Source: Apoderus coryli
Lineage: Eukaryota; Arthropoda; Insecta; Coleoptera; Attelabidae
Direction: 5' to 3'
Assembly (NCBI GenBank): GCA_911728435.2
Contig: OU452216.1
Location: 1,047,981-1,111,980, forward strand
DNA: 64,000 nt
Of this stretch, positions 3,349 to 63,485 are shown piece after piece. Numbering within the stretch: the stretch's first letter is position 1; every line of letters starts with the position of its first letter. The translations under genes and the position numbers were made by a program. A model generated the notes under the pieces. It saw nothing but the letters and a program-made list of their open reading frames with translations, was not told the origin of the DNA and made no database searches.

Positions 3349-3639
3349 GTGTAGTAAAACATTTAATATGTTTTTAGAAATTTGAAAAAAAAGTTATGTT
3401 GCCTGAAGAAGACAAAGTAAAGTTCTCAAAACGTTGCATACCAAAAAGAATGTGACATAAAATAAATACACAATATTTATTTCAAAAACTAGTTTCATCT
3501 GAACCTCATTCCCAAGAAAATCGACCAATTAAAAAAATAGATATTTGGAAACTTGTGAAAGTTTAGAAATTATTAAAAATAATTCAAAAGCACTAAACAA
3601 AAATAAGGGACCAATAGTATTTTGCATTCTTTAGTTTGT

Positions 3640-4060
3640 AAGTAATCAATATATTGTGACGTATGTACCGCCCTCTCAATTGTAGCGAGGCGACCAATTA
3701 CAGCGCCTCGCCCTGGTATGTAAGTACCTAGTATACCTATAAGGTGGACGGTGTTTAGTGTTAGTTTAGTTTTAATTATCTCATGAGGATGCTAACAGTG
3801 TGAGCGAAACGCGCGTCGAGAATAAAAAAGTGTTTTGGTGAAGTGGTAAAACGTGTTTTAGTTTAACGCTAGAAATTGTCTGTCAGACCTTTTACTATCA
3901 CCAGACTGCGTTTCGTTGATTCACGACTCATGGGTGGTGATCGGTCAGGAGTTGACAGACAAACACTCGATTTAGATGTGGTATGTATCCCCAGATGGAT
4001 ACGCGTTGTAAAATAATGTGTTTGGCTACATCTACTAGTTAACTGGTGAATAGATATTCA
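3640..4060. repeat. hammerhead-bearing repeat debris
   Basis: Two decayed hammerhead-like motifs face each other. On plus, 3778-3823 reads a CTC stem, an altered core (CATGAGGA where CTGAGGA is expected), GCTAAC/GTGAGC stem II, GAAA, the palindromic stem III ACGCGCGT, C and GAG. On minus, 3934-3980 has a perfect 7-bp stem I (ATCACCA/TGGTGAT), a core mutated to CCCATGA, and GAAACGCAGTC. Both are presumably dead because conserved core bases are changed. Confidence 0.5.
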
Positions 4061-4467: not shown

Positions 4468-5399
4468 GTAAGTAATAATTTAACAACAATTTGTTGCGTA
4501 TTGTCTACTTCCGCACTGTGTACGTACCAGAAAAAAAAGTGTTAGATTATCAATTAGATATTGAGGATCAGCAGTTCAAGTTGATCCGCCCGAACCTTCC
4601 ACTGCGATAACCGAAGGCTCTGTTGGGGCTCACACCTATTTATAGTTCACCCAGCTGCTCAATCTTCTTAATGCAGTCTATTATTAGCCAACCGATAGAG
4701 GTAACAACTCCATTAAATCCTATTGGCAACACTAGAAATGCCCGAATTGCACAACGGAAGGCTTTATTGACGAATAAGAGCTTATACTGGCACTAGATAC
4801 CAAATGACCACAAGATGTCATCACATACATCTTGGTGTCGTTCGTGCTAGTATAAGCTCTATTCGTAAATGTTGGAAATTTGAATCACATTGCCTGCCGA
4901 TTAGTAATGTGCAACTTGGATACAAACAACTATCGGTATCGAAAGGATACTTGAGTTCAATGTATCTGATACCTACTTTGGATATGGATACTTATGACAC
5001 AAAGAACATACACATTACCATATTTAAAGAAAAAATATCAAAAATAACTATAATTCTAGTTTCAGCCTAAGATACATTTTGCAGATCCTTTGTAGGAAAG
5101 TACATTTTGCTTTATTTGTTTCAATTAATTTAACATGCAACCACACTGCACTTTTCTTATGTTGCAAAGAACAATTCATCGTTAACTGAAAATATAGCGT
5201 GCCTGACTCCAATTCTATTATACTTTTTGCACTACTGTCGATCACCACTGATGAGTTGTTGTGGATCATCCAAACGGCTCGTCTGCTGGGAGCATGGTAG
5301 TGTGAAGCAAATTTCCAACATAACTTAAAGTCTTGTTACATTATGTAACAAGCAATTGGTATCTATTATTACTTATGAATATATTTTTATTAATTTCAG
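4468..5399. repeat. putative intron filled by a rearranged 336-bp hammerhead unit
   Basis: Pieces of the same 336-bp unit found at 13-14 kb recur here at lower identity. 4698-4800 is in one orientation (AACACTAG, GCCCGAAT, GGAAGGCTTTATT). 4830-4905 and 5233-5360 are in the other (GCTAGTATAAGCTC, GGAAATTTGAATCACATTGC, TTCCAACATAACTTAAAG). About 330 bp of unrelated DNA splits the ribozyme region. The hammerhead at 5243-5285 keeps CACCACTGATGA but GAAA has become CAAA, so it should be inactive. Confidence 0.65.
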
Positions 5400-11640: not shown

Positions 11641-13016
11641 AATAATTAGTATGAATCAGGATTGCCCACTAGAACCTGTTTACATCTAGAACGGATTTAA
11701 TATGGTTTTATAAGCAAATCCAAATGCAAAAGCTATTGGGATTAATTTGTAGTTATCAGTTTCTATCAGGATTGCCCAATAGAACCTGTTTACATTTAGA
11801 ACGGATTTAATATGGTTTTATAAGCAAATCCAAATGCAAAAGCTATTGGGATTAATTTGTAGTTATCAGTTTCTATCAGGATTGCCCAATAGAACCTATT
11901 TACATTTAGAACGGATTTAAATGGTTTTATAAGCAAATCCAAATGCAAAAGCTATTGGGATTAATTTGTATTTATCAGATTCTATCAGGATTGCCCAATA
12001 GAACCTGTTTACATTTAGAACGGATTTAATATGGTTTTATAAGCAAATCCAAATGCAAAAGCTATTGGGATTAATTTGTATTTATCAGATTCTATCAGGA
12101 TTGCCCAATAGAACCTGTTTACATTTAGAACGGATTTAATATGGTTTTATAAGCAAATCCAAATGCAAAAGCTATTGGGATTAATTTGTAGTTATCAGTT
12201 TCTATCAGGATTGCCCACTAGAACCTGTTTACATTTAGAACGGTATTAATATGGTTTTATAAGCAAATCCAAATGCAAAAGCTATTGGGATTAATTTGTA
12301 GTTATCAGTTTCTATCAGGATTGCCCAATAGAACCTGTTTATATTTAGAACGGATTTAATATGGTTTTATAAGCAAATCCAAATACAAAAGCCATTGGGA
12401 TTAATTTGTAGTTATCAGTTTCTATCAGGATTGCCCAATAGAACCTGTTTACATTTAGAACGTTTTAATATGGTTTTATAAGCAAATCCAAATGCAAAAG
12501 CTATTGGGATTAATTTGTAGTTATCAGTTTCTATCAGGATTGCCCAATAGAACCTGTTTACATTTAGAACGGATTTAATATGGTTTTATAAGCAAATCCA
12601 AATGCAAAAGCTATTGGGATTAATTTGTAGTTATCAGTTTCTATCAGGATTGCCCAATAGAACCTGTTTACATTTAGAACGGATTTAATATGGTTTTATA
12701 AGCAAATCCAAATGCAAAAGCTATTGGGATTAATTTGTATTTATCAGATATAATCAGGATTGCCCAATAGAACCTGTTTACATTTAGAACGGATTTAATA
12801 TGGTTTTATAAGCAAATCCAAAAGCTATTGGGATTAATTTGTATTTATCAGTTTCTATCAGGATTGCCCAATAGAACCTGTTTACATTTAGAACGGATTT
12901 AATATGGTTTTATAAGCAAATCCAAATGCAAAAGCTATTGGGATTAATTTGTAGTTATCAGTTTCTATAAGGATTGCCCAATAGAACCTGTTTACATTTA
13001 GAACGGATTTAATATG
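11641..13016. repeat. 110-bp satellite array, left block (~12 units)
   Basis: Tandem units of 110 bp (109-111) with the landmark GGATTGCCCAATAGAACCTG at 11659, 11769, 11879, 11988 and onward. They are highly similar, with a few short deletions. The unit also contains GGTTTTATAAGCAAATCC and AAGCTATTGGGATTAATTTG. The block is interrupted at 13016 by the hammerhead array and resumes at 14286. Confidence 0.95.
13005..13016 (+). repeat. 12-bp target-site duplication, left copy
   Basis: GGATTTAATATG at 13005-13016 is repeated at 14286-14297. In an uninterrupted satellite unit it occurs once, so the duplication marks the insertion of 13017-14285. The last G could belong to the insert. Confidence 0.75.
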
Positions 13017-13242
13017 AGAAAGAGATGTTTGTGGCGACACCTAGCGTGAACAGGCAATATGCCGGGTGAAACACAGTTCACTACGATGGCCGGACAAGAA
13101 GTAACAACTCCATTATATCCTATTGCCAACACTAGATGCGCCCGAATCCCCTAGCAGGGAGGCTTTATTTAAGAATTGCTTGTTACATAAAGCAACAAGA
13201 CTTTAAGTTATGTTGGAAATTTATTTCACACTACCATGCTTC

Positions 13243-13284
13243 CACCAGACGGCCGTTTCGTCGATCCACGACTCATCAGTGGTG
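13243..13284 (-). ncRNA. hammerhead ribozyme, unit 1
   Basis: On the minus strand: CACCA / CTGATGA / GTCG-TGGAT-CGAC / GAAA / palindromic ACGGCCGT / C / TGGTG. This fits every conserved core position of a type I hammerhead. It lies in the left (minus) half of the array. Confidence 0.88.
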
Positions 13285-13577
13285 ATCGGCAGGCAGTGTG
13301 ACCCAAATTTCCAACATTTACAAAGAGCTTATACTAGCACGAGAATTGATTGAGAAAGAGATGTTTGTGGCGACACCTAGCGTGAACAGGCAATATGCCG
13401 GGTGAAACACAGTTCACTACGATGGCCGGACAAGAAGTAACAACTCCATTATATCCTATTGCCAACACTAGATGCGCCCGAATCCCCTAGCAGGGAGGCT
13501 TTATTTAAGAATTGCTTGTTACATAAAGCAACAAGACTTTAAGTTATGTTGGAAATTTATTTCACACTACCATGCTT

Positions 13578-13613
13578 CACCAGACGGCCGTTTCGTCGAT
13601 CCACGACTCATCA
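13578..13613 (-). ncRNA. truncated hammerhead at the inversion junction
   Basis: The same sequence as the neighbouring ribozymes from GATGAGTCG onward, but the 5' stem I strand and the first two core bases are replaced by the opposite-orientation unit. It cannot fold as a hammerhead. The break falls inside the ribozyme, which may reflect how the inverted join formed. Confidence 0.8.
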
Positions 13614-13835
13614 TAATAAAGCCTCCCTGCTAGGGGATTCGGGCGCATCTAGTGTTGGCAATAGGATATAATGGAGTTGTTACTTCTTGTCCGGCCATCG
13701 TAGTGAACTGTGTTTCACCCGGCATATTGCCTGTTCACGCTAGGTGTCGCCACAAACATCTCTTTCTCAATCAATTCTCGTGCTAGTATAAGCTCTTTGT
13801 AAATGTTGGAAATTTGGGTCACACTGCCTGCCGAT

Positions 13836-13877
13836 CACCACTGATGAGTCGTGGATCGACGAAACGGCCGTCTGGTG
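13836..13877 (+). ncRNA. hammerhead ribozyme, unit 3
   Basis: Stem I CACCA (13836-13840) / TGGTG (13873-13877); core CTGATGA (13841-13847); stem II GTCG/CGAC with loop TGGAT (13848-13860); GAAA (13861-13864); loop-free palindromic stem III ACGGCCGT (13864-13871). Predicted cleavage is after C13872. A perfect consensus core. The palindrome implies a weak monomer and a strong dimer. Confidence 0.92.
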
Positions 13878-14171
13878 GAAGCATGGTAGTGTGAAATAAA
13901 TTTCCAACATAACTTAAAGTCTTGTTGCTTTATGTAACAAGCAATTCTTAAATAAAGCCTCCCTGCTAGGGGATTCGGGCGCATCTAGTGTTGGCAATAG
14001 GATATAATGGAGTTGTTACTTCTTGTCCGGCCATCGTAGTGAACTGTGTTTCACCCGGCATATTGCCTGTTCACGCTAGGTGTCGCCACAAACATCTCTT
14101 TCTCAATCAATTCTCGTGCTAGTATAAGCTCTTTGTAAATGTTGGAAATTTGGGTCACACTGCCTGCCGAT

Positions 14172-14213
14172 CACCACTGATGAGTCGTGGATCGACGAAA
14201 CGGCCGTCTGGTG
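14172..14213 (+). ncRNA. hammerhead ribozyme, unit 4
   Basis: Identical to the copy at 13836-13877, exactly 336 bp downstream. Cleavage at both sites (after 13872 and 14208) would release a unit-length 336-nt RNA with ends suited to circularisation. Confidence 0.92.
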
Positions 14214-14285
14214 GAAGCATGGTAGTGTGAAATAAATTTCCAACATAACTTAAAGTCTTGTTGCTTTATGTAACAAGCAATTCTT

Positions 14286-15045
14286 GGATTTAATATGGTT
14301 TTATAAGCAAATCCAAATGCAAAAGCTATTGGGATTAATTTGTAGTTATCAGTTTCTATCAGGATTGCCCAATAGAACCTGTTTACATTTAGAACGGATT
14401 TAATATGGTTTTATAAGCAAATCCAAATGCAAAAGCTATTGGGATTAATTTGTATTTATCAGATATAATCAGGATTGCCCAATAGAACCTGTTTACATTT
14501 AGAACGGATTTAATATGGTTTTATAAGCAAATCCAAAAGCTATTGGGATTAATTTGTATTTATCAGATTCTAGCAGGATTACCCAATAGAACCTGTTTAC
14601 ATTTAGAACGGATTTAATATGGTTTTATAAGCAAATCCAAATGCAAAAGCTATTGGGATAAATTTGTAGTTATCAGATTCAATCAGGATTGCCCACTAGA
14701 ACGGATTTAATATGGTTTTATAAGCAAATCCAAATGCAAAAGCTATTGGGATTAATTTGTAGTTATCAGTTTCTATCAGGATTGCCCAATAGAACCTGTT
14801 TACATTTAGAACGGATTTAATATGGTTTTATAAGCAAATCCAAATGCAAAAGCTATTGGGATTAATTTGTAGTTATCAGATTCAATCAGGATTGCCCACT
14901 AGAACCTGTTTACATTTAGAACGGATTTAATATGGTTTTATAAGCAAATCCAAATGCAAAAGCTATTGGGATTCATTTGTAGTTATCAGATTCAATCAGG
15001 ATTGCCCACTAGAACCTGTTTAAATCTAGAACGGATTTAAATGTA
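14286..15045. repeat. 110-bp satellite array, right block (~7 units)
   Basis: The same family as 11641-13016, resuming directly at the right copy of the target duplication. Some units carry internal deletions (for example near 14695). The last unit diverges at about 15045. Confidence 0.93.
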
Positions 15046-16440
15046 AATCCCTGTATATTATTATAAATAAATTATAACTCTTCAATTTTGTTGAAAAACG
15101 TTAAGGTCTATAGTATTATAGAATTACTTACCTCTTCGTCGAATTAATTTTCATTTATTATTATTATTTTTTATATATGTCTAGAATTATTGTTTTAAAA
15201 AACCATAACTTTGGGATTTGTGGAAGCAAAAAACAGTCTGCACTCGGTTACATGTACTTTTTTTCTATTTTAAAATTACATGTCAATATTTATCTCAATG
15301 TTCACCTAAAACAAAATATAAAATATTAATAATACTTAATCGATGAGTAGAAACAAGTACGTTTTATCACTTCACCAAACAATTTTTTTAATGTATAGGC
15401 GCGTTTTGGTAACAATGTTAGCATCTTCAAAAGAGAACTAAAATGCTTGTCAACATCACTTGAAAATAAAATAAAAGTGATTTGAAATGAAGTGGTAAGA
15501 CGTGTGCTTACTTGTCTAATAATTACAATTAATAAAATAGTTTATTCTCACAGTATAGTAGTAGTAGTATAGTAATAACACAAACAACGTCAGTTATATC
15601 AAATGACATAAAAACGGTAGCAAAACATGTTTCGTAAGTAGAAACTGTAATCATTAACATTAGGTACATACAAAAACAAAGATATCAACATCATAATTCA
15701 ATTATGTTTTATTTAGAACATATTAATAGTTCTTTGAGCTAACATATATTTTTTGTCATACATATATTATGTAAAATGATGAATACTAAATTTTTACGCG
15801 AAATTAATAATCATAATATACCTAATTATTTAATTTATATCAGGCAAGTGTCTAGTCTTTTAAAATCACCACACTGGCGTAGGCGTAAAGAAGTTTAAAG
15901 ACGTCTTGTCTTGGGTTTCAATAATAATCGGATTATGGAAATGTTTTAGAAGATATATATTGTGAACTAAATAAGTAGCTATTAAAGTTTTAGGGCTCCA
16001 TAATATATTGCGCGACTAAGTTTAATGAAAATTATTTTTGCAATGTTATCATAAATAAGTGTTTTAGGTCATTTTATACGTAAATAAGTACTTGTTGAAC
16101 CAAATTTGGTAAACCATACTACTGAACATTTCTAAGTTCTGAACTTTTGGCAAAATAAAAAAAAAACATAACTACCTAAAAATCTTACTGGGCTTGCCTG
16201 AAGACAGCAGATACACCACATAGCCACATAGTAAACTTGGTCTACATACGCGATATAAAATGAGTGCCTTAGAGAATCCCGTGAAAAGTGTATAAAACGG
16301 ATAAAAAGTAAACCCAATATTTTTGTCGACTATAAAATACTAATAAAAAAAAAAGATGTTAGGACTTTTTTTATAGAAAAAATTATAACATAAAATTGTT
16401 ATTGAATAATACTAACTTTCCGTTCCTCATGTCTTATTGT
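15046..16440. repeat. AT-rich spacer with one decayed hammerhead-like repeat
   Basis: Mostly unremarkable. On minus at about 15395-15430, GAAGATGCTAACATTGTTACC, AAAACGCGCC and a nearby TTTGGTGAAGTGATAAAACG match the debris at 3781-3860 (GGATGCTAACAGTGTGAGCG, TTTGGTGAAGTGGTAAAACG). It is a second degraded copy of that family. A partly inverted echo (GAAATGAAGTGGTAAGACG) follows at about 15486. No gene is seen in this stretch. Confidence 0.45.
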
Positions 16441-20139: not shown

Positions 20140-22620
20140 AATCTGCATTATTTAGAATAACGGACATGAATGAAATTTTTTATTGAATCCGTATTGAAAC
20201 CAATCGCATCGTGGAAATTCTTTTTCAGCAATTCTATATTAAACGCAATTGAAATAAGCAGTTTTATGCCGCATAAAAACTAATTCAAACTGATAAAACC
20301 AAATTAAACATTTGATTTGGAATACCTTATTGAAACCAATAAATTCCAATTAAAGAATTTCTTATTAATCCATATTGAAACCAATTCGTTTCATGATAAT
20401 TTTTATTCAGTACTTCCATATTAAACGCAATTGAAATAAGCAGTTTTATGCCGCATAAAAACTAATTCAAACTGATAAAACCAAATTAAACATTTGATTT
20501 GAAATACCTTATGGAAACCAATAAATTCCAAATAAAGAATTTCTTATTAATCCATATTGAAACCAATTCGTTTCATGATAATTTTTATTCAGTACTTCCA
20601 TATTAAACGCAATTGAAATAAGCAGTTTTATGCCGCATAAAAACTAATTCAAACTGATAAAACCAAATTAAACATTTGATTTGGAATACCTTATTGAAAC
20701 CAATAAATTCCAATTAAAGAATTTCTTATTAATCCATATTGAAACCAATTGGTTTCATGATAATTTTTATTCAGTACTTCCATATTAAACGCAATTGAAA
20801 TAAGCAGTTTTATGCCGCATAAAAACTAATTCAAACTGATAAAACCAAATTAAACATTTGATTTGGAATACCTTATTGAAACCAATAAATTCCAAATAAA
20901 GAATTTCTTATTAATCCATATTGAAACCAATTCGTTCCATGGTAATTTTTATTCAGTATTTCCATATTAAACGCAATTGAAATAAGCAGTTTTATGCCGC
21001 ATAAAAACTAATTCAAACTGATAAAACCAAATTAAACATTTGATTTGGAATACCTTATGGAAACCAATAAATTCCAAATAAAGAATTTCTTATTAATCCA
21101 TATTGAAACCAATTCGTTCCATGGTAATTTTTATTCAGTACTTCCATATTAAACGCAATTGAAATAAGCAGTTTTATGCCGCAGAAAAGCTAATTCAAAC
21201 TGATAAAACCAAATTAAACATTTGATTTAGAATACCTTATTGAAACCAATAAATTCCCAATAAAGAATTTCTTATTAATCCATATTGAAACCAATTCGTT
21301 CCATGGTAATTTTTATTCAGTACTTCCATATTAAACGCAATTGAAATAAGCAGTTTTATGCCGCATAAAAACTAATTCAAACTGATAAAACCAAATTAAA
21401 CATTTGATTTGGAATACCTTATTGAAACTAATAAATTCCAAATAAAGAATTTCTTATTAATCCATATTGAAACCAATTCGTTCCATGGTAATTTTTATTC
21501 AGTACTTCCATATTAAACGCAATTGAAATAAGCAGTTTTATGCCGCATAAAAACTAATTCAAACTGATAAAACCAAATTAAACATTTGATTTGGAATACC
21601 TTATTGAAACCAATAAATTCCAAATAAAGAATTTCTTATTAATCCATATTGAAACCAATTCGTTCCATGGTAATTTTTATTCAGTACTTCCATATTAAAC
21701 GCAATTGAAATAAGCAGTTTTATGCCGCATAAAAACTAATTCAAACTGATAAAACCAAATTAAACATTTGATTTGGAATACCTTATTGAAACCAATAAAT
21801 TCCAAATAAAGAATTTCTTATTAATCCATATTGAAACCAATTCGTTCCATGGTAATTTTTATTCAGTACTTCCATATTAAACGCAATTGAAATAAGCAGT
21901 TTTATGCCGCATAAAAACTAATTCAAACTGATAAAACCAAATTAAACATTTGATTTGGAATACCTTATTGAAACCAATAAATTCCAAATAAAGAATTTCT
22001 TATTAATCCATATTGAAACCAATTCGTTCCATGGTAATTTTTATTCAGTACTTCCATATTAAACGCAATTGAAATAAGCAGTTTTATGCCGCATAAAAAC
22101 TAATTCAAACTGATAAAACCAAATTAAACATTTGATTTGGAATACCTTATTGAAACCAATAAATTCCAAAAACCAATTCGTTCCATGGTAATTTTTATTC
22201 AGTACTTCCATATTAAACGCAATTGAAATAAGCAGTTTTATGCCGCATAAAAACGAATTCAAACTGATAAAACCAAATTAAACATTTGATTTGGAATACC
22301 TTATTGAAACCAATAAATTCCAAATAAAGAATTTCTTATTAATCCATATTGAAACCAATTCGTTCCATGGTAATTTTTATTCAGTACTTCCATATTAAAC
22401 GCAATTGAAATAAGCAGTTTTATGCCGCATAAAAACTAATTCAAACTGATAAAACCAAATTAAACATTTGATTTGGAATACCTTATTGAAACCAATAAAT
22501 TCCAAATAAAGAATTTCTTATTAATCCATATTGAAACCAATTCGTTCCATGGTAATTTTTATTCAGTACTTCCATATTAAACGCAATTGAAATAAGCAGT
22601 TTTATGCCGCATAAAAACGA
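20140..22620. repeat. 182-bp satellite array (~13.5 units)
   Basis: The landmark CAGTTTTATGCCGCATAAAA occurs at 20259, 20441, 20623 and 20805, every 182 bp. One unit near 22168 has lost about 35 bp. The first units differ more than the later ones. The array stops abruptly at about 22620 where a truncated LINE begins. It is unrelated to the 110-bp satellite. Confidence 0.95.
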
Positions 22621-24103
22621 ATATTTTTCCGGAGATGTGGAAAATAGCTAAAGTTATTCCAATTTTTAAAAAAGGTGATCCACATCTCGTTAGTAACTAC
22701 CGTCCAATTTCCATACTGTGCAATTTTTCAAAGTTATTGGAAATAATATTATACGAAAATATATTTGCCGATATCAAAACCACTATCGATATTGCACAGC
22801 ATGGCTTTATGAAAAACAAATCATGTATTACAAACTTGGCAACATTTTCACAGTACACATGTGAGGCATTGGACCTTCGGGGGCAGGTGGACGCTGTGTA
22901 CACTGATTTTTCCAAAGCGTTCGATCAAATTGACCATTACATTCTTCTTTCAAAGCTTAGGCACATTGGATTCTCACCAGGTCTGTTGAAGTCTTATTTG
23001 TTCGATCGACGGCAATTTGTAAAATATGAAAATTACTCCTCATACAGTTTTACTCCTGCTTCCGGAGTGCCTCAGGGTTCTAACCTAGGACCCTTGCTAT
23101 TTATAATTTTTATAAATGATATTGTTAATAACATCTCCTGTCAAAAGCTCCTGTTTGCAGACGACTTAAAATTGTTCTTTCAAATAAAATCTGTTAATGA
23201 CTGCTTATTCCTTCAGCGAAATTTAAGTAAACTTAGCACTTGGTGTGATATAAACAAATTAAATTTAAATATTAATAAGTGTCATGTAGTAACGTTTTCT
23301 AGAAGGGACACCAGAATCTTGTTTGATTATAGATTAAACAATGTTATATTATCTCGCTTGGATACAATTAAGGATTTGGGTGTGACATTTGATGAGAACT
23401 TCACCTTTATACCACATATTAAACAGCTGGCAACTTCTTGTATCAAGACGTTAGGGTTTTTGTTTAGAAACTGTAAACACTTTACAAATGTTCAAACATT
23501 TAAATTATTGTACTGCGCGTATGTACGTTCTAAATTGGAATACGCGCAAATTGTATGGCATCCAATATATAACTGCCACTCATACACACTCGATTCCATA
23601 CACAAACGATTCCTCAAATATTTAGCTTACCGAGAAGATCATATCTATCCTCCTAGAGGCTCGGATATTGGTATACTTTTAAATAGATTCCACGAACACT
23701 CATTGAGTTGCAGAAGGGAAGTCTTATCCATAAAATTTTTGATCAATCTGTTAAACAATGACATCGACAGTAGTTATTTATTGTCCAAAATAAACTTTCT
23801 TGTGCCACGTCAAGCAACAAGATCCGCGTTGCTGATCTATGCAAACTCATGCAGAACTAATATTGGAAACCAATCACCTATTAACTTTATGTGCCAAAAT
23901 TTCAACCGAATATCCCACTTATGTGACATACATTTCACAAAACTAAATGTAATCATCAACACATACTTTTCTATGTATACCTAGCTTAAAACTGGTTTTT
24001 ACTCGTAAATTTGAATTATTTTTGATATTTGTATATTGTATATTGTTTTCTGTAATTGGGCTCTGCCTGTTGAAAATAAAGTGCTTATTATTATTATTAT
24101 ATG
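22620..24103 (+). mobile_element. 5'-truncated Jockey/CR1-like LINE
   Basis: Starts inside the last satellite unit, mid reverse transcriptase, runs through an intact reading frame to 23984 and a short 3' UTR, and ends in AATAAAGTGCTTATTATTATT. 5' truncation and a microsatellite-like tail are typical of target-primed reverse transcription. No target duplication is recognisable because the right flank is not satellite. Confidence 0.8.
22635..23984 (+). CDS. reverse transcriptase of LINE (partial)
   Basis: About 449 residues. The RT boxes are in order: VIPIFKKGDPHLVSNYRPIS (block 1-2), VYTDFSKAFDQIDH (catalytic D), SGVPQGSNLGPLLFIIFIND (block 4), and KLLFADDLKLF with the FADD catalytic pair. 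The thumb and C-terminal region follow (LGVTFDENFTFIPHI, RSKLEYAQIVWHP). No endonuclease is present, since the 5' part is missing, and the RT frame has no stops. The start given is only the first ATG after the truncation point. The clade assignment (Jockey/CR1 side) rests on the block 4 text and tail type. Confidence 0.85.
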   Translation: MWKIAKVIPIFKKGDPHLVSNYRPISILCNFSKLLEIILYENIFADIKTTIDIAQHGFMKNKSCITNLATFSQYTCEALDLRGQVDAVYTDFSKAFDQIDHYILLSKLRHIGFSPGLLKSYLFDRRQFVKYENYSSYSFTPASGVPQGSNLGPLLFIIFINDIVNNISCQKLLFADDLKLFFQIKSVNDCLFLQRNLSKLSTWCDINKLNLNINKCHVVTFSRRDTRILFDYRLNNVILSRLDTIKDLGVTFDENFTFIPHIKQLATSCIKTLGFLFRNCKHFTNVQTFKLLYCAYVRSKLEYAQIVWHPIYNCHSYTLDSIHKRFLKYLAYREDHIYPPRGSDIGILLNRFHEHSLSCRREVLSIKFLINLLNNDIDSSYLLSKINFLVPRQATRSALLIYANSCRTNIGNQSPINFMCQNFNRISHLCDIHFTKLNVIINTYFSMYT

Positions 24104-28327: not shown

Positions 28328-28503
28328 AATGCAGAGCTAGCAAGAATAGGAACAGAGTTGAGGCTCAATGTGGCGGAAGTTTTAATTCCGGCATTGTCGT
28401 GGATAAATATGTATCAAAAATATTTATCCACGACAATGCCGGAATTAAAACTTCCGACAAATTGAGCCTCAACTCTGTTCCTATTCTTGCTAGCTCTGCA
28501 TTC
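28328..28503. repeat. near-perfect 83-bp palindrome, 10-nt spacer
   Basis: Left arm 28328-28410 and right arm 28421-28503 pair with about three mismatches (GTGGCGG versus TTGTCGG). Each arm encodes the same peptide patch (NAELARIGTELRLN...) in opposite directions, so it arose as an inverted duplication of coding sequence from the psq-type ORF next to it. Confidence 0.9.
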
Positions 28504-43957: not shown

Positions 43958-46308
43958 TGCTACGGTTTAAATTAATAAAAGAATATTTATATGATTTTTG
44001 TTTTTATCATTAAACTTATTATTTAAGAAAACACAAAAAAAGAAGAGAGATCGGGTAACGTTTTCAAACCTTGTGACAGCTTTAGCTTAAACCACAGCAA
44101 AGCTCGACTAGGTCAGCCTTCAGGGGGGGTGCGCCACTAACTTTGCGGTAAAGTTAGAAACCTACGATGTTTTGTATGTCACAAAGCTTGAATCCACCAT
44201 ACGATCATTCACCATAATTAAATTCAAAAGATATATATTTATACGAAATTATTTTTCAACACACAATACAAAAAAAATTTGAAATATTTATATTAATAAA
44301 TATCGTTACGAAACAATAAAAGAATAATGAATCTTATCACTGAATTCCTATTCTAAAAATTATAAAAGAAATATTCAGTACAATAAGCAATGTTTGGATC
44401 TCCCAAATACTGATATACGAAATTATTAGGTATATATTAACAAAAATACCTCAGTCATTCAACAATACTAATATTCAATACTAAGTTCTAAAGAAAATAT
44501 ATTACCAATAAAGAGTGAAAATTTTAATCGATATCTATATACTTATTGTTTATATTTATTTCAATAATAATATAAAATAAGACACCCTATACGTGATCAC
44601 GAATAGTTCCCAACACTACTATATAAAATAGTTTTAGAATACATATTTAAATATCACACAATTACGCAAGATAATAACAAAATATATAAACTCTTGATAT
44701 ATGTTTTTTTTGTCATTTAGAATAAACAAATATTTACTATTTAATAATTGAAAGAATAACCAAATGGTACTATTTAACATAAAAAAAAAACAATTATATG
44801 AACATACAGAAGGAAAATTATTATTTTTATTTTATTTTATCAATTATGCGAGATATGAGAAATTCACTTTGCAAATCAGTTAATAGGAAAAATTAATAAA
44901 ATGACGTATTCAACAAATAAATTTTTACAATAAAAACCTGGTCTCGTTCTGATGATCAACCATCCATTTTTACACAAACATTCGACCAGAACCATGAAAA
45001 TTTTTTTTTTTGTCACCATACAACAGCAGTCATAAATCGATGATTGCCAAAAATTGGAGTATAAATCGTTCAAACCAATTTTTATTTATTACTTGATTGT
45101 AATGGACAAACGGAAAAATATCCGAACTCAGGAAGAAAACAGAAGCAGAAGAAAAAGCCCTAAAAATATAAAATCAAGTCCTAAGTACGGGTACGAGGTT
45201 TACTAAAAAGGAAGCACAAGAAAAAAATTAAAGGAAAGTGTAGTTCCCTCACCTTGATGTTGTGTGGCTTAATTGTAATCCAGCGATACCATTTACATGG
45301 CCAACCAGAAATCGGTTACAAAGTTGAGTCTGCATAAGAATTGGAAAAAAAAAGGTATAATTAAATTTTGGTCGATGAAGGAAAAAACTATAGAAGCAAA
45401 AATAGTCAAGGACACTCACCCAACAAGAAATGAAGTGGTTAAATAAAATCCAGACAAAGCTGATTGTTTGATCGCACAATGCACACAATATATCACTTCC
45501 AAACCATCCAGAAATCAAACAATAATTCCGGACAATAACTCTCACAAATCCCACACAAAAATGGCCTCCAATCAAGCTTAGAGAAATTAGAGAACTGTCC
45601 ACTTTAACCACTAGTATACTCCTGCCGCACTCGACTTACAAATGAAGAATAATGACAATGCAAAATTTCACAAAACGCAATGTCAACTTAAGAGTTTCGA
45701 CCAATCAAAATTTCACATGATAGCACGCCAACGATTGTTAAGAGAACTAACACAAATATATTTTATTATGAATAATTAAGGAAAAAAACGATAATTATAT
45801 ACTAAGAACACAATATGCTATAGAAAAACAAATATGAATAATTATTTCATAATTCAAATAATTCTCCCAAACAACAATTATGAATTCTAAATCAAAGAAA
45901 GAATGCCCTCTTTCATTTAAATCTGGGAAGTTAACATAGCGCACAGGAAAAATCAATAAATATGTACTTCTACTACTGTAGGTACCCTTATCAACAAATT
46001 TTGTTTATTTATAAATTTAAATATTTTATGCCTATTTAACAATAGATGGAGCGAGATGTATTATTACCCTTTTAATTAGAACAATTTAAAATTCGAATCA
46101 CGTAATCATTTGTGTTATGGTGCAGGTAAGTATAAACCCGATGGTTACGAGAGCACATACAGGGATAGTCAGAAATTATGTACCTACAAAAATCAATTAA
46201 ACATATTATTTAATTCAAATATACTTGGAACAGTGAATGTTTCCATAGCAACAATTAATTTCCCTTTTTTTCTGAAAATAGAAATGTATACAAATTTTAA
46301 ACGTAACA
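43958..46308 (-). repeat. Gypsy 3' LTR (2,351 bp)
   Basis: TGCTACGGTTTAAATTAATA ... AAACGTAACA on plus, with TG/CA borders. Open stretches inside it (for example 45249-45611) repeat identically in the other LTR and show no protein features. Confidence 0.93.
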
Positions 46309-46392: not shown

Positions 46393-48873
46393 TTAACTAT
46401 TTGATGGATCGGATTTAAGATCCTTAGCGTTCCATATTCCGCGAATTTTACCATCCAAATCTGTTAGTTCATATGACCAAGGAGAAACACGTTTACTAAT
46501 TCGAAACGGTCCAACAAATTTTGGTGCCAATTTCGAAGTGAAATTCTGAGCTGCATTTGACAACACAAAATTTTTGCGATATACCGATTGTCCTACAATA
46601 AAATTAGGATCTCTACGTCGCAAATTATACGTCCTACTAGCTTTTTCGGATGCGAGTTGAATACGTGCCTGAACGTCTTTGTACAATTTACTAAAAGCAC
46701 TACTTCGAATATTTAAATTATTTTGATCTCGTAATATAGGAAAATTTTCATTCTCATTATCAAAAGCATTATGATTACCACTTAATGACATTTCTCTACC
46801 GAAATTGATAAAATAAGGCGAATTTTCAGTAACTTCATGTTTGGCTGATCGTAAAGCTCCTGCAACTTTTTGTAAATAATTTTCCCATAACCGCTGATTT
46901 TCTTCAACATACGACGATAACATAATTTTTAATGTTTTATTAGTCCGCTCAGTAGGGTTTGCTTGGGCATGAAAGTTCGCCGTAAATCGTATTCTAACAT
47001 TATACGAGGACATTAAATTGCGAAAAATATGACTAGTAAATTGTTTCCCATTATCTACAATTATTGCAGATGGCACTCCAAATACCATAAAAACATTATC
47101 TTCGATATTTTTACAAACTGTTTCAGCATTAGCTGTACGTACCGGAAAAAATAGAGGGTATTTACTAAAATAATCAACTACAACTAATATATACAAATTT
47201 CCATGTACAGATTTAGGCAGAGGACCAACCAAATCCGCCGAAATAACCTCCCAAGGTCTGGACACATATGGTCTACCACACATAAAACCTATTGGTGCCT
47301 TTTGCTCTGGTTTAAACCTACAACAAGTATTACATTTTCTTATATATTGCGCAACATCATATCGCATTTTGGGCCAATAATATCGCGTCGCTAACCTATT
47401 AAAACTTTTATATACACCCAGGTGACCAGAGGTTTCACTATCATGTGCTTCCTGAATAAGCTTAATTCGTTCTGCTTTAGGAATTACCCTTTTCCAAGAA
47501 TCAATATCGGGGTCAGACAAATCAGGGTAGGTACAAGGGACATGCTTATAAAGAACACCGTCAAAACTACGCCAAGATGGATACTTCTCAGGATATTTAC
47601 GAACTCTGTCCAACTGTTTTAAATACCACTTATCATAATTTCTCTCTTCAACCCTATCAGACACAGAATCTATAATTGGAACTGAACGCGACAAACAATC
47701 CGGCACCAAATGATCTCTACCTTTACGATGTACGATTTCGAAATCATGAGCTTGCAAAGCAACAGACCATCTTGCCAATCTCCCACGAGGATCCTTTAAA
47801 TTACTCAGCCATAATAAAGAGTGATGATCAGTAATAACAGTAAATGGAACTCCTTCAATGTATGGCCTAAATTTTTGTATCGCCCACAGAACCGCTAAAC
47901 ATTCACGCTCCGTTGTTGTGTAGTTCCTTTCGGTTTTAGATAAAGAACGGCTAATGTAAGCAATTACCTTCTCACCGTCAGAATGAGGTTGACTAAGAAC
48001 AGCTCCGAGTCCAAATCCAGAAGCATCGCATTGAATGTGGAAGGGCAGACTGTAGTCCGGACAACTAAGAATAGGTGAAGACACTAAACATTGTTTTAGT
48101 GCTCTAAAAGAATTTTCACATTCATCAGACCATACAAACTTACTACTTTTCCGAATTAGGTTCGTAATTGGTGAAACGAGGGTCGAAAAATTTGGTACGA
48201 AACGTCGATACCATCCCGCCATTCCTATTATTCTACGAACTTCAGCAACGTTTTTAGGTCTAGGTAGATTTAATATGGCACTAACCTTGTCAGTATCAGT
48301 ATGCAGACCAAAGCGATCAACGTGATAACCCAAAAATTTCAGTTCATTCTTGCATAGGTTACATTTTTCCTTACTAACGGATAGACCAGCATCCTTAAGA
48401 CGATCAAAAACCTCACGAAGAACAGTCAAATGACTTTCAAAATCTCGAGTGATGACCACAATATCGTCGAGATATACAAATACATTAGGCTCGAGATCCT
48501 TCGAAATAATCCTATCGATAAGTCGCTGAAATGTTGCTGGCGAGTTGGAGAGTCCAAAAGGCATACGTTTAAACTGGAACAACCCACGATTTGGAACAAT
48601 AAAAGCTGTATATTTCTTAGATGAATCTTCCATTGGAATATTCCAAAACGCAGACTTTATATCGATTGTCGATAAGAAACGCGCATCTCTAAGTTTATCC
48701 AAAATTGAAGTTATATTTGGTATGGGGTAAGCATCTTTCTCTGAAACTTTATTTAGAGCTCTATAGTCTACACAAAAACGAAAACTATTATCTTTCTTTT
48801 TAATAAGAACAATAGGGGACGCCCAAGGACTGTCAGATTTTTCGATAATGTCGTCTTCAAGCATTTTATCCAA
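46393..48873 (-). CDS. pol: Gypsy Pol: RT, RNase H, integrase
   Basis: 826 uninterrupted codons. RT: SPWASPIVLIKKKDNSFRFC, FQFKRMPFGLSNSPATFQRL, VYLDDIVVI (YLDD). RNase H: FHIQCDASGFGLGAVL, TERECLAVLWAI, TDHHSLLWL. Integrase: the zinc site H-x-H/C-x2-C (SGHLGVYKSF, CNTCCRF), catalytic D in SADLVGPLPKS, D in IIVDNGKQF, E in NPTERTNKTLK. A GPF-type C-terminal module follows (KFVGPFRISKRVSPWSYEL). It replicates the element in a virus-like particle and inserts the cDNA. The first ATG is internal to the RT: the natural frame enters from the protease, and a one-base deletion near 48889 now separates them. No stops elsewhere. Confidence 0.92.
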   Translation of the reverse strand: MDKMLEDDIIEKSDSPWASPIVLIKKKDNSFRFCVDYRALNKVSEKDAYPIPNITSILDKLRDARFLSTIDIKSAFWNIPMEDSSKKYTAFIVPNRGLFQFKRMPFGLSNSPATFQRLIDRIISKDLEPNVFVYLDDIVVITRDFESHLTVLREVFDRLKDAGLSVSKEKCNLCKNELKFLGYHVDRFGLHTDTDKVSAILNLPRPKNVAEVRRIIGMAGWYRRFVPNFSTLVSPITNLIRKSSKFVWSDECENSFRALKQCLVSSPILSCPDYSLPFHIQCDASGFGLGAVLSQPHSDGEKVIAYISRSLSKTERNYTTTERECLAVLWAIQKFRPYIEGVPFTVITDHHSLLWLSNLKDPRGRLARWSVALQAHDFEIVHRKGRDHLVPDCLSRSVPIIDSVSDRVEERNYDKWYLKQLDRVRKYPEKYPSWRSFDGVLYKHVPCTYPDLSDPDIDSWKRVIPKAERIKLIQEAHDSETSGHLGVYKSFNRLATRYYWPKMRYDVAQYIRKCNTCCRFKPEQKAPIGFMCGRPYVSRPWEVISADLVGPLPKSVHGNLYILVVVDYFSKYPLFFPVRTANAETVCKNIEDNVFMVFGVPSAIIVDNGKQFTSHIFRNLMSSYNVRIRFTANFHAQANPTERTNKTLKIMLSSYVEENQRLWENYLQKVAGALRSAKHEVTENSPYFINFGREMSLSGNHNAFDNENENFPILRDQNNLNIRSSAFSKLYKDVQARIQLASEKASRTYNLRRRDPNFIVGQSVYRKNFVLSNAAQNFTSKLAPKFVGPFRISKRVSPWSYELTDLDGKIRGIWNAKDLKSDPSNS

Positions 48874-49531
48874 TTCCTCGTCGATATGTTTTGCACTACT
48901 GGAGAAACAGGGTAATAACGCTGCTTAATAGGTGTATGAGACGTACGAATTTTATGTGTTGTTAAATTTGTGCATCCTATTCCAGGTGACATACCTTCAA
49001 ATATTTTAGACTTAAAATCTTCCAAAATTTTTAACTGCTTGGAAGTTAAATTCATATCGTGGCTTTCACTGTTCAATACTGCCACTGAATCCGCCTCAAA
49101 TTGCCAAGAATCACTACGCAAATTCGGTATCACACCCATAAGACACCAGAAATCAAATCCCAAAATTAAATTTACAGGAATACTGGGCATAATTAAAATA
49201 TCCAAAACTATGATTTTTCCCTCTAATGAAATCGGAACGGAAACGGTACCTAACACTGGACAAGTATCACCATTAGCAACTCTACAACTATTTACTGAAG
49301 ATGGGCTTAGAATTAAGTTTAAACTCTTCAACTTCTCCCAACCAGGTTTACCTAAAATTGTGCGAGAAGCACCGCTATCCAAAAGACCTAACATATGAAT
49401 ACCTAATATATCTATCTTTAAATAAGGACGCTTATCATTTTCGGCATGAGCTAAAATAAAATCAATAATTGGCTTTTGTGGATAATTAACAGTGGTCGAT
49501 CCAAAATTCTGAGAGTTCGTAAGTCGACCAT
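48768..49531 (-). CDS. Gypsy aspartic protease region
   Basis: LLDSGASRTILG carries the catalytic DSG, and LILGFDFW is the flap/second conserved patch. The frame is shifted by -1 relative to gag, consistent with programmed -1 frameshifting usual in Gypsy. Downstream the text before RT (HTPIKQRYYPVSP) is in this frame, then the frame is lost near 48889 where the RT resumes in another frame. The run of A there suggests a single-base loss or a consensus error. The overlap to 48768 past that point is out of frame with Pol. Confidence 0.75.
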
Positions 49532-50971
49532 CTACCGACTCTCTGGTTCGTTTTCCGAACGAGGATTACATTTAGGACACGTTAAAACAGTATAGTTTGG
49601 TTCGTTACATCGAAAACATCTACGTTGTCTTGGTTTTCTACAAGCATTTGATTTATGTCCAAACTCACGACAATTATAGCACTGAATAGACCGGCCATTA
49701 TTTCGATCATTTCCACGAGTATACCTATCACTAGATGTCGAAAAATTATTATTATTATTTACAAAAGAATGTCTTTGCCTATTATTAGTGATTCCAACCT
49801 CAGATAAATTTGGTTGCAAACGATCTGATGCATTTGAAACATCTACATATGCTAAATCAGGTTCGAGTAATCTAACATTTTTTCTAGAAGGTGGGGGTTT
49901 ATAGTTATCCGCCGTAAATCTCTTTGCCTCAGCTCTAAGAGCTAAATCAAGTAACTCCTCAACTGTTTTCAACTCAGATGACAACGGTAACTGTAACTGA
50001 TAATACGGGATCAGATTTTTACATAATATATTAAGCTTAGAACGCTCCGCAAGTTTAACTGGAAGTCTATCAAACAAATTGTCCATAACCGAAAAATATA
50101 TTCCTACGGACTCGTTTTCACCTTGAGTTCTACTAACTATCTCAGAATACAATCTATCTGCGTAATCAGGCGCTTGAAATTGTTTTCTTAAAAGGCTAAC
50201 TAAAGATGCCCAATTTTGACATTTCTTTCTAACTGAACGGTACCAACTATAAGCCTTTCCTGAAAATAAATCTATTCCCGAACTAAACAATTCCTGATCG
50301 CTAACATTTCTGGCATGTTTAAGTTCTTCTACTCGCTCAAGAAAACTACTTAATGTTAGACCATCAGATTCTCCCGAAAACTTTAAATTCCACTGAGCAC
50401 ATGGTATTGTTTTTCGTTTTTCTGAACCAAAAGTATTTTTATTTGTTGCAGCGGACTCATCCTCAGAAGAATTATCGCTATCACTAGAGCTAACCGTTGT
50501 TACATCAAGTTCCGGTAAATTCAAAGACCTATTCAATTCTTCACGCTTGTAAATTTTAATTCTCTTCTCAAAATCACGTTGCAAATTTAATATGTCAATC
50601 AAAACTTTCGATTTATTCAGTTTATCGCTAGCCTCCACCGGTGCACTGCGATTAATACGACCTAGAGCGTAAGAAAATTTAGTTAATAATTTCCTCTTAA
50701 GATTCTCATTTGAACCGTCAAAATCTGCTAAAAGTTTTTTTATATCATCTAATTTAGATACTAAAGCGGTGTGATCATCCTTGAAGCTAAAAGGATACTC
50801 AGGATAATCGAGAGGGTTATTAGCTTTTTCTAATTTTAAAATGCTTCGTAAAGTCCTACGCAATTCATCCACATTGCCCGTAGTAGATATGCCACGCCAC
50901 GCAAGTTCATATGTAATTTCCTCAACACTCAGACGATTTATTTCATAACCAGCCTTTACAGGGGAAGCCAT
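49532..50971 (-). CDS. gag: Gypsy Gag
   Basis: 479 codons from ATG at 50971. The N-terminal half has charged, helix-rich text (SVEEITYELAWRGI, LRRTLRSILKLEKANN). A capsid-like core follows (FSGESDGLTLSSFLERVEEL, YSWYRSVRKKCQNW, FQAPDYADRLYSEIVSRTQG). It ends with zinc knuckles: CYNCREFGHKSNAC (C-x2-C-x4-H-x4-C) and CFRCNEPNYTVLTC, in which the histidine position is not H. It packages the RNA. It is intact from start to stop, and its 3' end meets the protease in the -1 frame. Confidence 0.9.
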   Translation of the reverse strand: MASPVKAGYEINRLSVEEITYELAWRGISTTGNVDELRRTLRSILKLEKANNPLDYPEYPFSFKDDHTALVSKLDDIKKLLADFDGSNENLKRKLLTKFSYALGRINRSAPVEASDKLNKSKVLIDILNLQRDFEKRIKIYKREELNRSLNLPELDVTTVSSSDSDNSSEDESAATNKNTFGSEKRKTIPCAQWNLKFSGESDGLTLSSFLERVEELKHARNVSDQELFSSGIDLFSGKAYSWYRSVRKKCQNWASLVSLLRKQFQAPDYADRLYSEIVSRTQGENESVGIYFSVMDNLFDRLPVKLAERSKLNILCKNLIPYYQLQLPLSSELKTVEELLDLALRAEAKRFTADNYKPPPSRKNVRLLEPDLAYVDVSNASDRLQPNLSEVGITNNRQRHSFVNNNNNFSTSSDRYTRGNDRNNGRSIQCYNCREFGHKSNACRKPRQRRCFRCNEPNYTVLTCPKCNPRSENEPESR

Positions 50972-51444
50972 AATTATTTAACAATGATTAATAAGTAATT
51001 CTTAATAAAAAAGCAATTAAAAATAATCCCAATATTATTACTTTAATTTATATAAACGTATTTAATTAGAAAACAAAAATAACGCAAAATCGTATTTATA
51101 TTCGAGCTGTGAATATAAAAAAAAATCCGTTTAATTATTTATTTACACACAAATTCCAGTGTAAATAGTTTATCTTTTATATACCCAGAAATATACCAAA
51201 TATTATTAAAAATACTGTTCAGCTATTTTTCCAATATTTATAAACTCAAATAAATATATTTAAAATTTCTAAGGAGATCCAACCACAAATGTATACAATT
51301 GATAAGATAAACTTTCAGAACTAGTGATAAAATTCAGTTTTCAAAAAAAATAATCAAAAAAAACTGCAATGGATTTTAAACAAGCTTTTCTTTAAAAAAA
51401 CTCGCTGTTTCTTAAAAAAACTGGCTGCTTTTCTAAAAAACTGG

Positions 51445-54816: not shown

Positions 54817-54864
54817 GATACTGACGAATTCGTTTCGCTCTTGTTATGAGCTCGTCAGAGTACC
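54817..54864 (-). ncRNA. canonical hammerhead ribozyme, isolated
   Basis: On minus: stem I GGTACT/AGTATC (6 bp, one G-U), core CTGACGA, stem II GCTC-ATAACAA-GAGC, GAAA, a 10-nt loop-free palindromic stem III ACGAATTCGT, then C. Every core position fits, with no extra base. It sits just beyond the broken right end of the BEL element. The sequence is unrelated outside the core to the 336-bp units, so it is another family. Confidence 0.85.
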
Positions 54865-62939: not shown

Positions 62940-63130
62940 CGTCACAAATATTCTTGTAGCCATTTGGTATCTCGTAAATATTGGAAATTTGAATCACATT
63001 GCCTGCCGATCAACATTGATAACTTGTGGATCAACGAAACGGCCCCTCTGGTGAAAGGACGGTAGTGGGAAGCAAATTTCCAACATAACATAACTAAAAG
63101 TCTTGTTACATTATGTTACAAGCAAGTCGT
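62940..63130 (+). repeat. decayed 336-bp-type hammerhead unit
   Basis: GGAAATTTGAATCACATTGC, CAACGAAACGGCCC, CTCTGGTG and TTCCAACATAAC follow the order of the 13-14 kb units. The core has become TTGATAA and stem III is altered, so it should be inactive. Only about half a unit remains. Confidence 0.7.
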
Positions 63131-63423
63131 AAATAAATAATAATAAACTAAACAGCCATACTATTGTTGTGGGCACTTACCAGATCGTAAAACTTTAATT
63201 TAATTACTTTTAAAAAATGAGAAAAAGACGAAAACACGCAACAAAAGCAAAAATAAATGACAAATTTCCAACCATTTAACTATAATTTATTAATTTAGCA
63301 AAATGAATTTATTTCCATCAAGGTGATAATATGTATAAACGTTTAAATCAATGTAAAACTCTGTCTTAACATTTGTATGAAGTACGACCCTCACATCTGA
63401 CAATACTGTATAAGGTTCCTTAA

Positions 63424-63462
63424 GTCACTGATGATGGACGTGTAGTCCGAAACATGTCTGGC
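63424..63462 (+). ncRNA. hammerhead ribozyme, third family
   Basis: Stem I GTCA/TGGC (one G-U), core CTGATGA (63428-63434), stem II GGAC-GTGTA-GTCC, GAAA (63449-63452), palindromic stem III ACATGT, cleavage after C63458. There is one extra U before stem II. The short stem I makes activity uncertain. It lies 24 bp from the BEL LTR at 63486. Confidence 0.6.
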
Positions 63463-63485
63463 ATTTAAAACAAGGTTTTAACGTA

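What the first reader, a model, noticed from the sequence alone, without database searches (positions are those of the whole stretch)
13017..14285. Retrozyme-like inverted array of self-cleaving 336-bp units inside a satellite
Three complete hammerheads with perfect cores and one truncated one sit in an array of two plus-strand units and ~1.8 minus-strand units. A 12-bp target duplication bounds it. Retrozymes described in plants and animals are direct tandem repeats; an inverted dimer-of-dimers inserted as one block is unusual. It may be a template-switch product of Penelope-type retrotransposition of circular RNA.
Basis: partly seen in the sequence, partly recalled or inferred. Interest (0 to 1): 0.9.

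Follow-up and report, generated by a model that had tools for sequence, protein, structure and literature searches.

The report
Hammerhead retrozyme copied into both strands
A tiny self-cleaving RNA element of an insect-like genome inserts itself as two mirror-image arms, each apparently copied from an RNA ring from its own fixed starting point on one of the two cut DNA strands, a pattern that larger Penelope jumping genes also leave in that genome.

Summary
In detail: 13017-14285 is a head-to-head array of 336-bp units (671 bp plus, 597 bp minus) with three complete type I hammerheads and one truncated, flanked by a 12-bp duplication, inside a 110-bp satellite. It is a metazoan non-LTR retrozyme by anatomy. 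It is not unusual here: of 43 insertions examined in 40 loci of the 428-Mb genome, 33 are two-armed and all 33 are minus-then-plus. Most outer ends lie at two unit positions, A (~335) and B (~153). In 29 of 33, including all 28 with a target duplication of 11 bp or more, one end is A and the other B. Arms share family alleles (119 of 121 comparisons) and run up to 7.9 laps; 1 of 66 inner ends is at the cleavage site. An older subfamily repeats the pattern. Penelope-like elements of the genome insert head-to-head too; 7 of 8 fetched have two different fixed ends. Best explanation: both cut strands prime reverse transcription of a circular RNA, each at its own internal site, by a Penelope-type enzyme. 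No RNA or enzyme was tested.

The parts
13005..13016 (.). target site duplication, left copy (GGATTTAATATG)
   Evidence: exact repeat; satellite phase restored when one copy and the array are removed
13017..13613 (-). left arm: about 1.78 units read on the minus strand; outer end = start site B (unit 153)
13614..13614 (.). inner joint, one base (T) that fits neither arm
13615..14285 (+). right arm: two 336-bp units less one base; outer end = start site A (unit 335)
14286..14297 (.). target site duplication, right copy
13242..13285 (-). complete type I hammerhead, predicted cleavage after 13248
   Evidence: RF00163 32.3 bits
13575..13621 (-). hammerhead truncated by the inner joint
   Evidence: RF00163 20.7 bits
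13835..13878 (+). complete type I hammerhead, predicted cleavage after 13872
   Evidence: RF00163 32.3 bits
14171..14214 (+). complete type I hammerhead, predicted cleavage after 14208
   Evidence: RF00163 32.3 bits
11655..15040 (.). 110-bp satellite that is the insertion target (interrupted by the array)
4687..5361 (.). older relative: minus copy then plus copy (head-to-head), later interrupted, flanked by a 10-bp repeat TCTATTATTA (4677-4686, 5362-5371); right end at site A, left end at neither site
62974..63137 (+). old single copy of the family (82%), right end near site A
3541..3864 (+). fragment of the Penelope-like family's 3' region (81% to L067)

Best explanation
The array is one insertion of a non-autonomous animal retrozyme. 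Multimeric transcripts are cut by the hammerhead and closed into a 336-nt circle (inferred from the published family; not shown here). A Penelope-type protein cuts an AT-rich target on both strands, 12 bp apart, and both free 3' ends prime reverse transcription of the circle, one at internal site A and the other at internal site B. Each polymerase runs round the circle for a variable number of laps. The two cDNA 3' ends are then joined, often at 2-3 shared bases, giving head-to-head arms with fixed outer ends, scattered inner ends and a 12-bp duplication. Shown: the anatomy, the two recurrent ends, their pairing, allele sharing and the parallel in Penelope elements. Inferred: circular rather than long linear template, and which enzyme acts.
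For: 43 insertions in 40 loci (window plus 39 fetched): 33 two-armed, 33/33 minus-then-plus; 29/33 one end A and one end B (15 A-left, 14 B-left; an end within unit 325-12 was called A, within 146-166 B); 28/28 of those with duplications of 11 bp or more (2^-28 if each end were A or B independently at even odds); 32/43 have a duplication scoring 9 or more against 9/334 mismatched pairs; the 32 are 11-16 bp, 18 of them 12, and 88% A+T against 68% in the flanks. Target is symmetric: T at +2 in 24/32 and at +3 in 27/32 nick sides, from the 16 two-armed insertions with exactly 12 bp. Arms agree at five family-polymorphic sites in 119/121 comparisons (16 of 18 where the rarer allele is involved); shuffled arms disagree 25 times on average, minimum 13 in 2000 shuffles. 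Arms reach 7.94 laps; 1/66 inner ends lies within 3 nt of the cleavage site; of the 29 A+B loci, 27 A-arms exceed 77 nt and 24 B-arms exceed 231 nt, the limits of a cleaved linear monomer (counted on the list). Inner overlap of 2 nt or more in 18/33 (BLAST extents). A and B are unpaired and in the same central multiloop of the predicted circle. Older subfamily, 16 loci: 7/7 two-armed are minus-then-plus, 5/7 A+B, 4/4 of those with duplications of 11 bp or more. Penelope elements in the same genome: 18/18 GIY-YIG pairs under 5 kb apart are minus-then-plus (read from the capped list, 150 of 1260 candidates scored); 8/8 fetched have 12- or 14-bp duplications (0/56 mismatched pairs reach that score) and 7/8 have two different recurrent ends about 30-38 nt apart. 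A purified lizard Penelope protein cleaves and extends both strands with two adjacent internal starts (PMC11167929, main text read).
Against: Exceptions: L009 and L020 (one end not at A or B, no duplication of 11 bp), L036 (A/A with palindromic flanks), L015's old copy (198/105), window locus 4687-5361, older L072 and L074, Penelope L060. L021's arms disagree at two sites, so its arms may come from two RNAs. 10/43 insertions are single-armed. The 40 scored places are the best of 1465 candidates, which may favour multi-copy loci; in 14 older loci not chosen for having two arms, 5 were two-armed (flanks of about 500 bp, so a distant arm could be missed). No significant similarity between retrozyme sites A/B and the start sites of the one Penelope family examined (p 0.13-0.75), so the partner family is not identified. 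A long linear multimer is not strictly excluded as template. No RNA data; one genome.
Confidence: 0.83

Rival explanations
1. Template switch or snap-back: one target-primed cDNA turns round at its end and copies itself or an antisense strand, giving an inverted repeat (first reader; self-priming on an antisense template is the published idea for Penelope inverted repeats).
For: Head-to-head inverted repeats are described as the most frequent kind in Penelope elements and were read that way (PMC3846280, passages seen).
Against: Predicts one fixed and one variable outer end. Both outer ends are at recurrent sites, one A and one B, in 29/33, and the scattered ends are in the middle.
Confidence: 0.05
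2. Both target strands prime, but on two independent RNA molecules.
For: L021's arms differ at two polymorphic sites; long unequal arms are easily explained if each has its own circle.
Against: A/A and B/B should then be common; none among 28 insertions with duplications of 11 bp or more, one A/A (L036, palindromic flanks) among all 33. Arms share alleles in 119/121 comparisons, although different circles could be identical in sequence.
Confidence: 0.2
3. Twin priming by a LINE (L1-like 5' inversion) on a linear RNA.
For: Twin priming gives inverted, truncated inserts flanked by target duplications (PMC2837659, abstract in the listing; the minus-then-plus order is recalled); LINE-like reading frames lie in the window (by eye).
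Against: In L1 the second start varies along the RNA (recalled); here it recurs. No poly-A tail at the 56 ends printed. Multi-lap arms need a circular or multimeric template. Penelope elements of this genome show the same pattern of two ends. LINE insertions of this genome were not examined.
Confidence: 0.06
4. DNA-level inverted duplication or assembly artefact.
For: L036 has palindromic flanks and could be such a case.
Against: Arms differ in length, target duplications are present, and two recurrent ends are found at dozens of unrelated sites.
Confidence: 0.01

Closest known systems
Metazoan non-LTR retrozymes (Cervera and de la Pena 2020, PMC7229834; parts 1-4 of 6 read)
   Same: Type I hammerhead, 336-bp tandem unit (published 170-400 nt), 44% GC, no long ORF, target duplication longer than 4 bp.
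   Different: Published arrays are described as tandem; 'inverted', 'opposite' and 'head-to-head' do not occur in its main text (supplement not read). Here all 33 two-armed insertions examined are head-to-head, mostly with paired recurrent ends.
Endonuclease-bearing Penelope-like elements (PMC3846280, passages; PMC11167929, main text)
   Same: Head-to-head inverted repeats, target duplications (8-10 bp in the rotifer cases; 12 or 14 bp in the 8 loci here), AT-rich targets, hammerheads, two internal starts that leave a 30-40-bp 'tail' at one inverted end.
   Different: Penelope elements encode RT and GIY-YIG endonuclease; the retrozyme encodes nothing of 110 aa or more. Its two start sites are 182 and 154 nt apart round the circle rather than 30-40 nt.
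Plant LTR retrozymes (features from PMC7229834 and passages of PMC7761336; PMC4918200 seen only in the listing)
   Same: Hammerhead-bounded non-autonomous element with a circular RNA.
   Different: Type III hammerhead, LTRs and 4-bp duplications.
L1 twin-primed 5' inversions (recalled; PMC2837659 abstract in the listing)
   Same: Both target ends prime on RNA; inverted inserts with target duplications.
   Different: One outcome among several rather than the form of all two-armed copies, no second fixed start site, linear poly-A RNA (recalled).

Membership tests
Metazoan non-LTR retrozyme | type I hammerhead with intact core | tested here: met
   RF00163 32.3 bits x3, below Rfam's cut-off of 34; expected pairing in the alignment
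Metazoan non-LTR retrozyme | short tandem unit (170-400 bp), GC under 50% | tested here: met
   336 bp, 44.3% GC
Metazoan non-LTR retrozyme | non-coding | tested here: met
   no stop-to-stop frame of 110 aa or more between 13017 and 14285
Metazoan non-LTR retrozyme | target duplication longer than 4 bp; dispersed copies | tested here: met
   12 bp here; 32/43 insertions
Metazoan non-LTR retrozyme | expressed as linear and circular RNA; self-cleaves | not testable with these tools
   no RNA data; structure only
Penelope-like mobilisation | head-to-head insert with target duplication in AT-rich DNA | tested here: met
   33/33 two-armed; duplications 88% A+T
Penelope-like mobilisation | two internal RT start sites, one at each end | tested here: met
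   29/33 two-armed retrozyme insertions, 7/8 Penelope loci of the same genome
Penelope-like mobilisation | RT with GIY-YIG present in the genome | tested here: met
   L067 ORFs of 734 and 752 aa with RVT_1 and GIY-YIG
Penelope-like mobilisation | start-site sequence shared with a Penelope family | tested here: not met
   one family compared, p 0.13-0.75; start sites of other families not mapped
L1-type twin priming | poly-A 3' end and variable second start | tested here: not met
   two recurrent ends without poly-A

The most novel reading that the evidence does not exclude
Every two-armed insertion uses one RNA circle with two dedicated start sites, A and B, held together in the circle's central junction; two polymerase units sit on the same circle, one per cut DNA strand, and chase each other round it. 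The Penelope 'tail' would be the same two-site rule on its own RNA, and animal retrozymes would be minimal two-site templates of that machine.
Probability: 0.5. Interest if true: 0.9.

Novelty: new variant of a known kind. Interest (0 to 1): 0.82.

Why it matters
Which enzyme moves animal retrozymes, and whether their circular RNA is the template, was left open: Penelope-like elements were called a strong candidate from co-occurrence, tandem copies and shared hammerheads (PMC7229834). Here the genome itself records where reverse transcription starts, on which strand, for how many laps and how the cDNAs join. It ties retrozymes to Penelope elements by insertion anatomy, gives a rule (one A, one B) that can be tested in vitro with a 336-nt RNA, and speaks against the self-priming model for Penelope inverted repeats.

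Tried and rejected
Rfam at the curated cut-off found no hammerhead; the E-value mode did. The near-exact two-lap right arm (671 bp) looked like a special stop; inner ends elsewhere are scattered, so I treat it as coincidence. I expected inner ends at the hammerhead cleavage site if linear monomers were the template; 1 of 66. Shared start-site sequence between retrozyme and one Penelope family: none significant. Priming microhomology: my null looked wrong because the flank used for it is itself biased (the T at +2/+3 of the target), so I draw nothing from it. Arm lengths are not correlated (Spearman 0.20, p 0.26). Exceptions to the A/B rule are listed in the Against line. Before counting, segments within 120 bp were grouped and groups shorter than 150 bp dropped.

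Literature: eight searches. In their listings and in what I read of seven papers (PMC7229834 parts 1-4; PMC11167929 main text; passages of PMC7761336, PMC3846280, PMC8969392, PMC11722881, PMC8490949) I saw no inverted retrozyme arrays and no one-A-one-B rule. The library lacks most subscription journals, and one relevant paper was not held.

Full report
What is there. The array at 13017-14285 consists of a plus-strand arm of two 336-bp units less one base (13615-14285) and a minus-strand arm of about 1.78 units (13613-13017). The two plus copies are identical over 335 bp and the minus arm differs by one deleted base. Three complete type I hammerheads and one cut by the inner joint are present; 60 resampled windows gave a mean of 0.02 such motifs. 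The unit is 44% GC in a 32% GC window and folds better than its shuffles (z -5.7). The array interrupts a 110-bp satellite; the 12-bp repeat at its ends is a target duplication, because the satellite's spacing is restored when the array and one copy are taken out.

The genome. The window lies in a 428-Mb, 129-contig assembly (C24:1047981-1111980). The best named relative of a helicase-like frame in the window is from a ladybird beetle at 61% (unnamed hits reach 68%), so the host is probably an insect; I do not know the species. Searching with one unit gave 212 matches in the 40 places scored, of 1465 candidates (the list shown was cut short). I fetched 39 further loci with flanks and mapped the stretches onto the circular unit (unit 1 = 13615).

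The rule. Of 43 insertions in those 40 loci, 33 have both orientations, and all 33 are minus-then-plus, that is head-to-head with RNA 3' ends outward. Most outer ends lie at two places: site A, after ...AACAAGCAATTCTT (unit 333-336, 1-3), and site B, after ...CATCTCTTTCTC (unit 149-156), as printed for 28 insertions. In 29 of the 33 one end is A and the other is B, in either order (15 and 14). All 28 two-armed insertions with a duplication of at least 11 bp obey it; L045, with 8 bp, is the 29th. The four exceptions are L009 and L020 (one end elsewhere, no such duplication), L036 (A/A, but its flanks are themselves mirror images) and an old copy in L015 (198/105). Ten insertions have one arm; the outer end is A in seven and B in three. 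Target duplications score 9 or more in 32 of 43 insertions against 9 of 334 mismatched flank pairs. The target is symmetric, with T at +2 in 24 of 32 and at +3 in 27 of 32 sides outside the nicks.

Template. Both arms carry the same family variants: 119 of 121 comparisons at five polymorphic sites agree, with both disagreements in L021; shuffled arms disagree 25 times on average and never fewer than 13 times in 2000 shuffles. Arms are up to 7.94 laps long. Inner ends are scattered, with 1 of 66 within 3 nt of the cleavage site, and in the 29 A+B loci 27 A-arms and 24 B-arms are longer than a cleaved linear monomer could give. This fits copying round a circle. A long uncut linear multimer is not strictly excluded. 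In the predicted circular fold A and B are both unpaired and belong to the same central multiloop; this is a single-sequence prediction, not evidence of contact.

Replication in an older subfamily. Of 16 loci (aligned pieces mostly 76-93% identical), seven are two-armed, all minus-then-plus; five are A+B, among them all four with a duplication of 11 bp or more. Two of the 16 (L068, L069) were picked because both orientations were visible, so the unselected share of two-armed loci is 5 of 14. The other places, 24 of 40, were not fetched. The window itself holds an older head-to-head copy (4687-5361) with a 10-bp repeat, whose left end is at neither site.

Penelope elements. A GIY-YIG search listed 150 scored places of 1260 candidates; by my reading of the list, 18 pairs lie under 5 kb apart and all 18 are minus-then-plus. 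Eight of the 18 were fetched, chosen mainly for small size. L067 has ORFs of 752 and 734 aa with RVT_1 and GIY-YIG in both arms. All eight have duplications of 12 or 14 bp; 0 of 56 mismatched pairs reach that score. In seven of eight, one end lies at GTCAG(TTT) and the other about 30-38 nt further on, after the 'tail' (counted on the ends printed); L060 differs. A purified lizard Penelope protein cleaves and extends both strands, with two adjacent internal starts whose spacing matches the known tail (PMC11167929, main text). Fragments of this Penelope family lie in the window at 3541-3864 and 15360-15443.

Mechanism. The simplest reading is double-sided target-primed reverse transcription of a circular RNA: staggered cuts 12 bp apart leave two 3' ends, one primes at A, the other at B, each copies some laps, and the two cDNA ends are joined, in 18 of 33 cases at 2 or more shared bases. 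The A+B pairing suggests that one RNA serves both strands; that last step is inferred.

What is not shown. No RNA, no cleavage assay, no enzyme assay. The Penelope family that moves this retrozyme is not identified; the start sites of the one family compared do not resemble A or B in sequence. The sample is of one genome, and the young-family loci are the best-scored candidates rather than a random draw.

Novelty. In what I read, retrozymes are described as tandem repeats and Penelope elements as a likely mobiliser (PMC7229834, parts 1-4; PMC11722881, passages; PMC8969392, passages). I saw no report of inverted retrozyme arrays or of the pairing rule (searches; passages). I file it as a new variant of a known kind: a retrozyme by anatomy, inserted in the way Penelope elements are.

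Noticed in passing
54823-54858 (-): A second, unrelated hammerhead-like motif with full core and stems (6, 4 and 4 pairs), single copy, near a Pao/Bel-like frame (by eye); weak Rfam match (HH9, 18.6 bits, cut-off 52).
   Followed up: partly
63424-63465 and about 3782-3830: Minimal Penelope-type hammerhead remnants seen by eye (my scan did not list them); the second lies in a Penelope fragment 81% like L067.
   Followed up: partly
28377-28453: Near-perfect palindrome that scores against several microRNA models, below their cut-offs, on both strands; looks like a short inverted-repeat element.
   Followed up: no
20174-22622: Second satellite, 182-bp period, with a 154-bp variant and a 336-bp step (154+182) that happens to equal the retrozyme length.
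   Followed up: no
46393-50977 with 45249-45635 and 52756-53142: Gypsy-like element (frames by eye) between two stretches whose translations are nearly identical and that look like LTRs.
   Followed up: no
L036 (G000:C5:25945300-25949600): Head-to-head retrozyme with A at both ends inside flanks that are mirror images of each other: a larger palindrome, perhaps a later inverted duplication.
   Followed up: partly
L014 and L034: Two insertions into the same sequence (ATTTTAGGTTAT) of what looks like a dispersed repeat, with A and B in opposite order: the target sequence does not fix which end is A.
   Followed up: partly
unit 85-112 of the retrozyme: 12 of 66 inner ends fall in this 28-nt stretch, which holds a predicted hairpin: a possible stop for the polymerase.
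   Followed up: no
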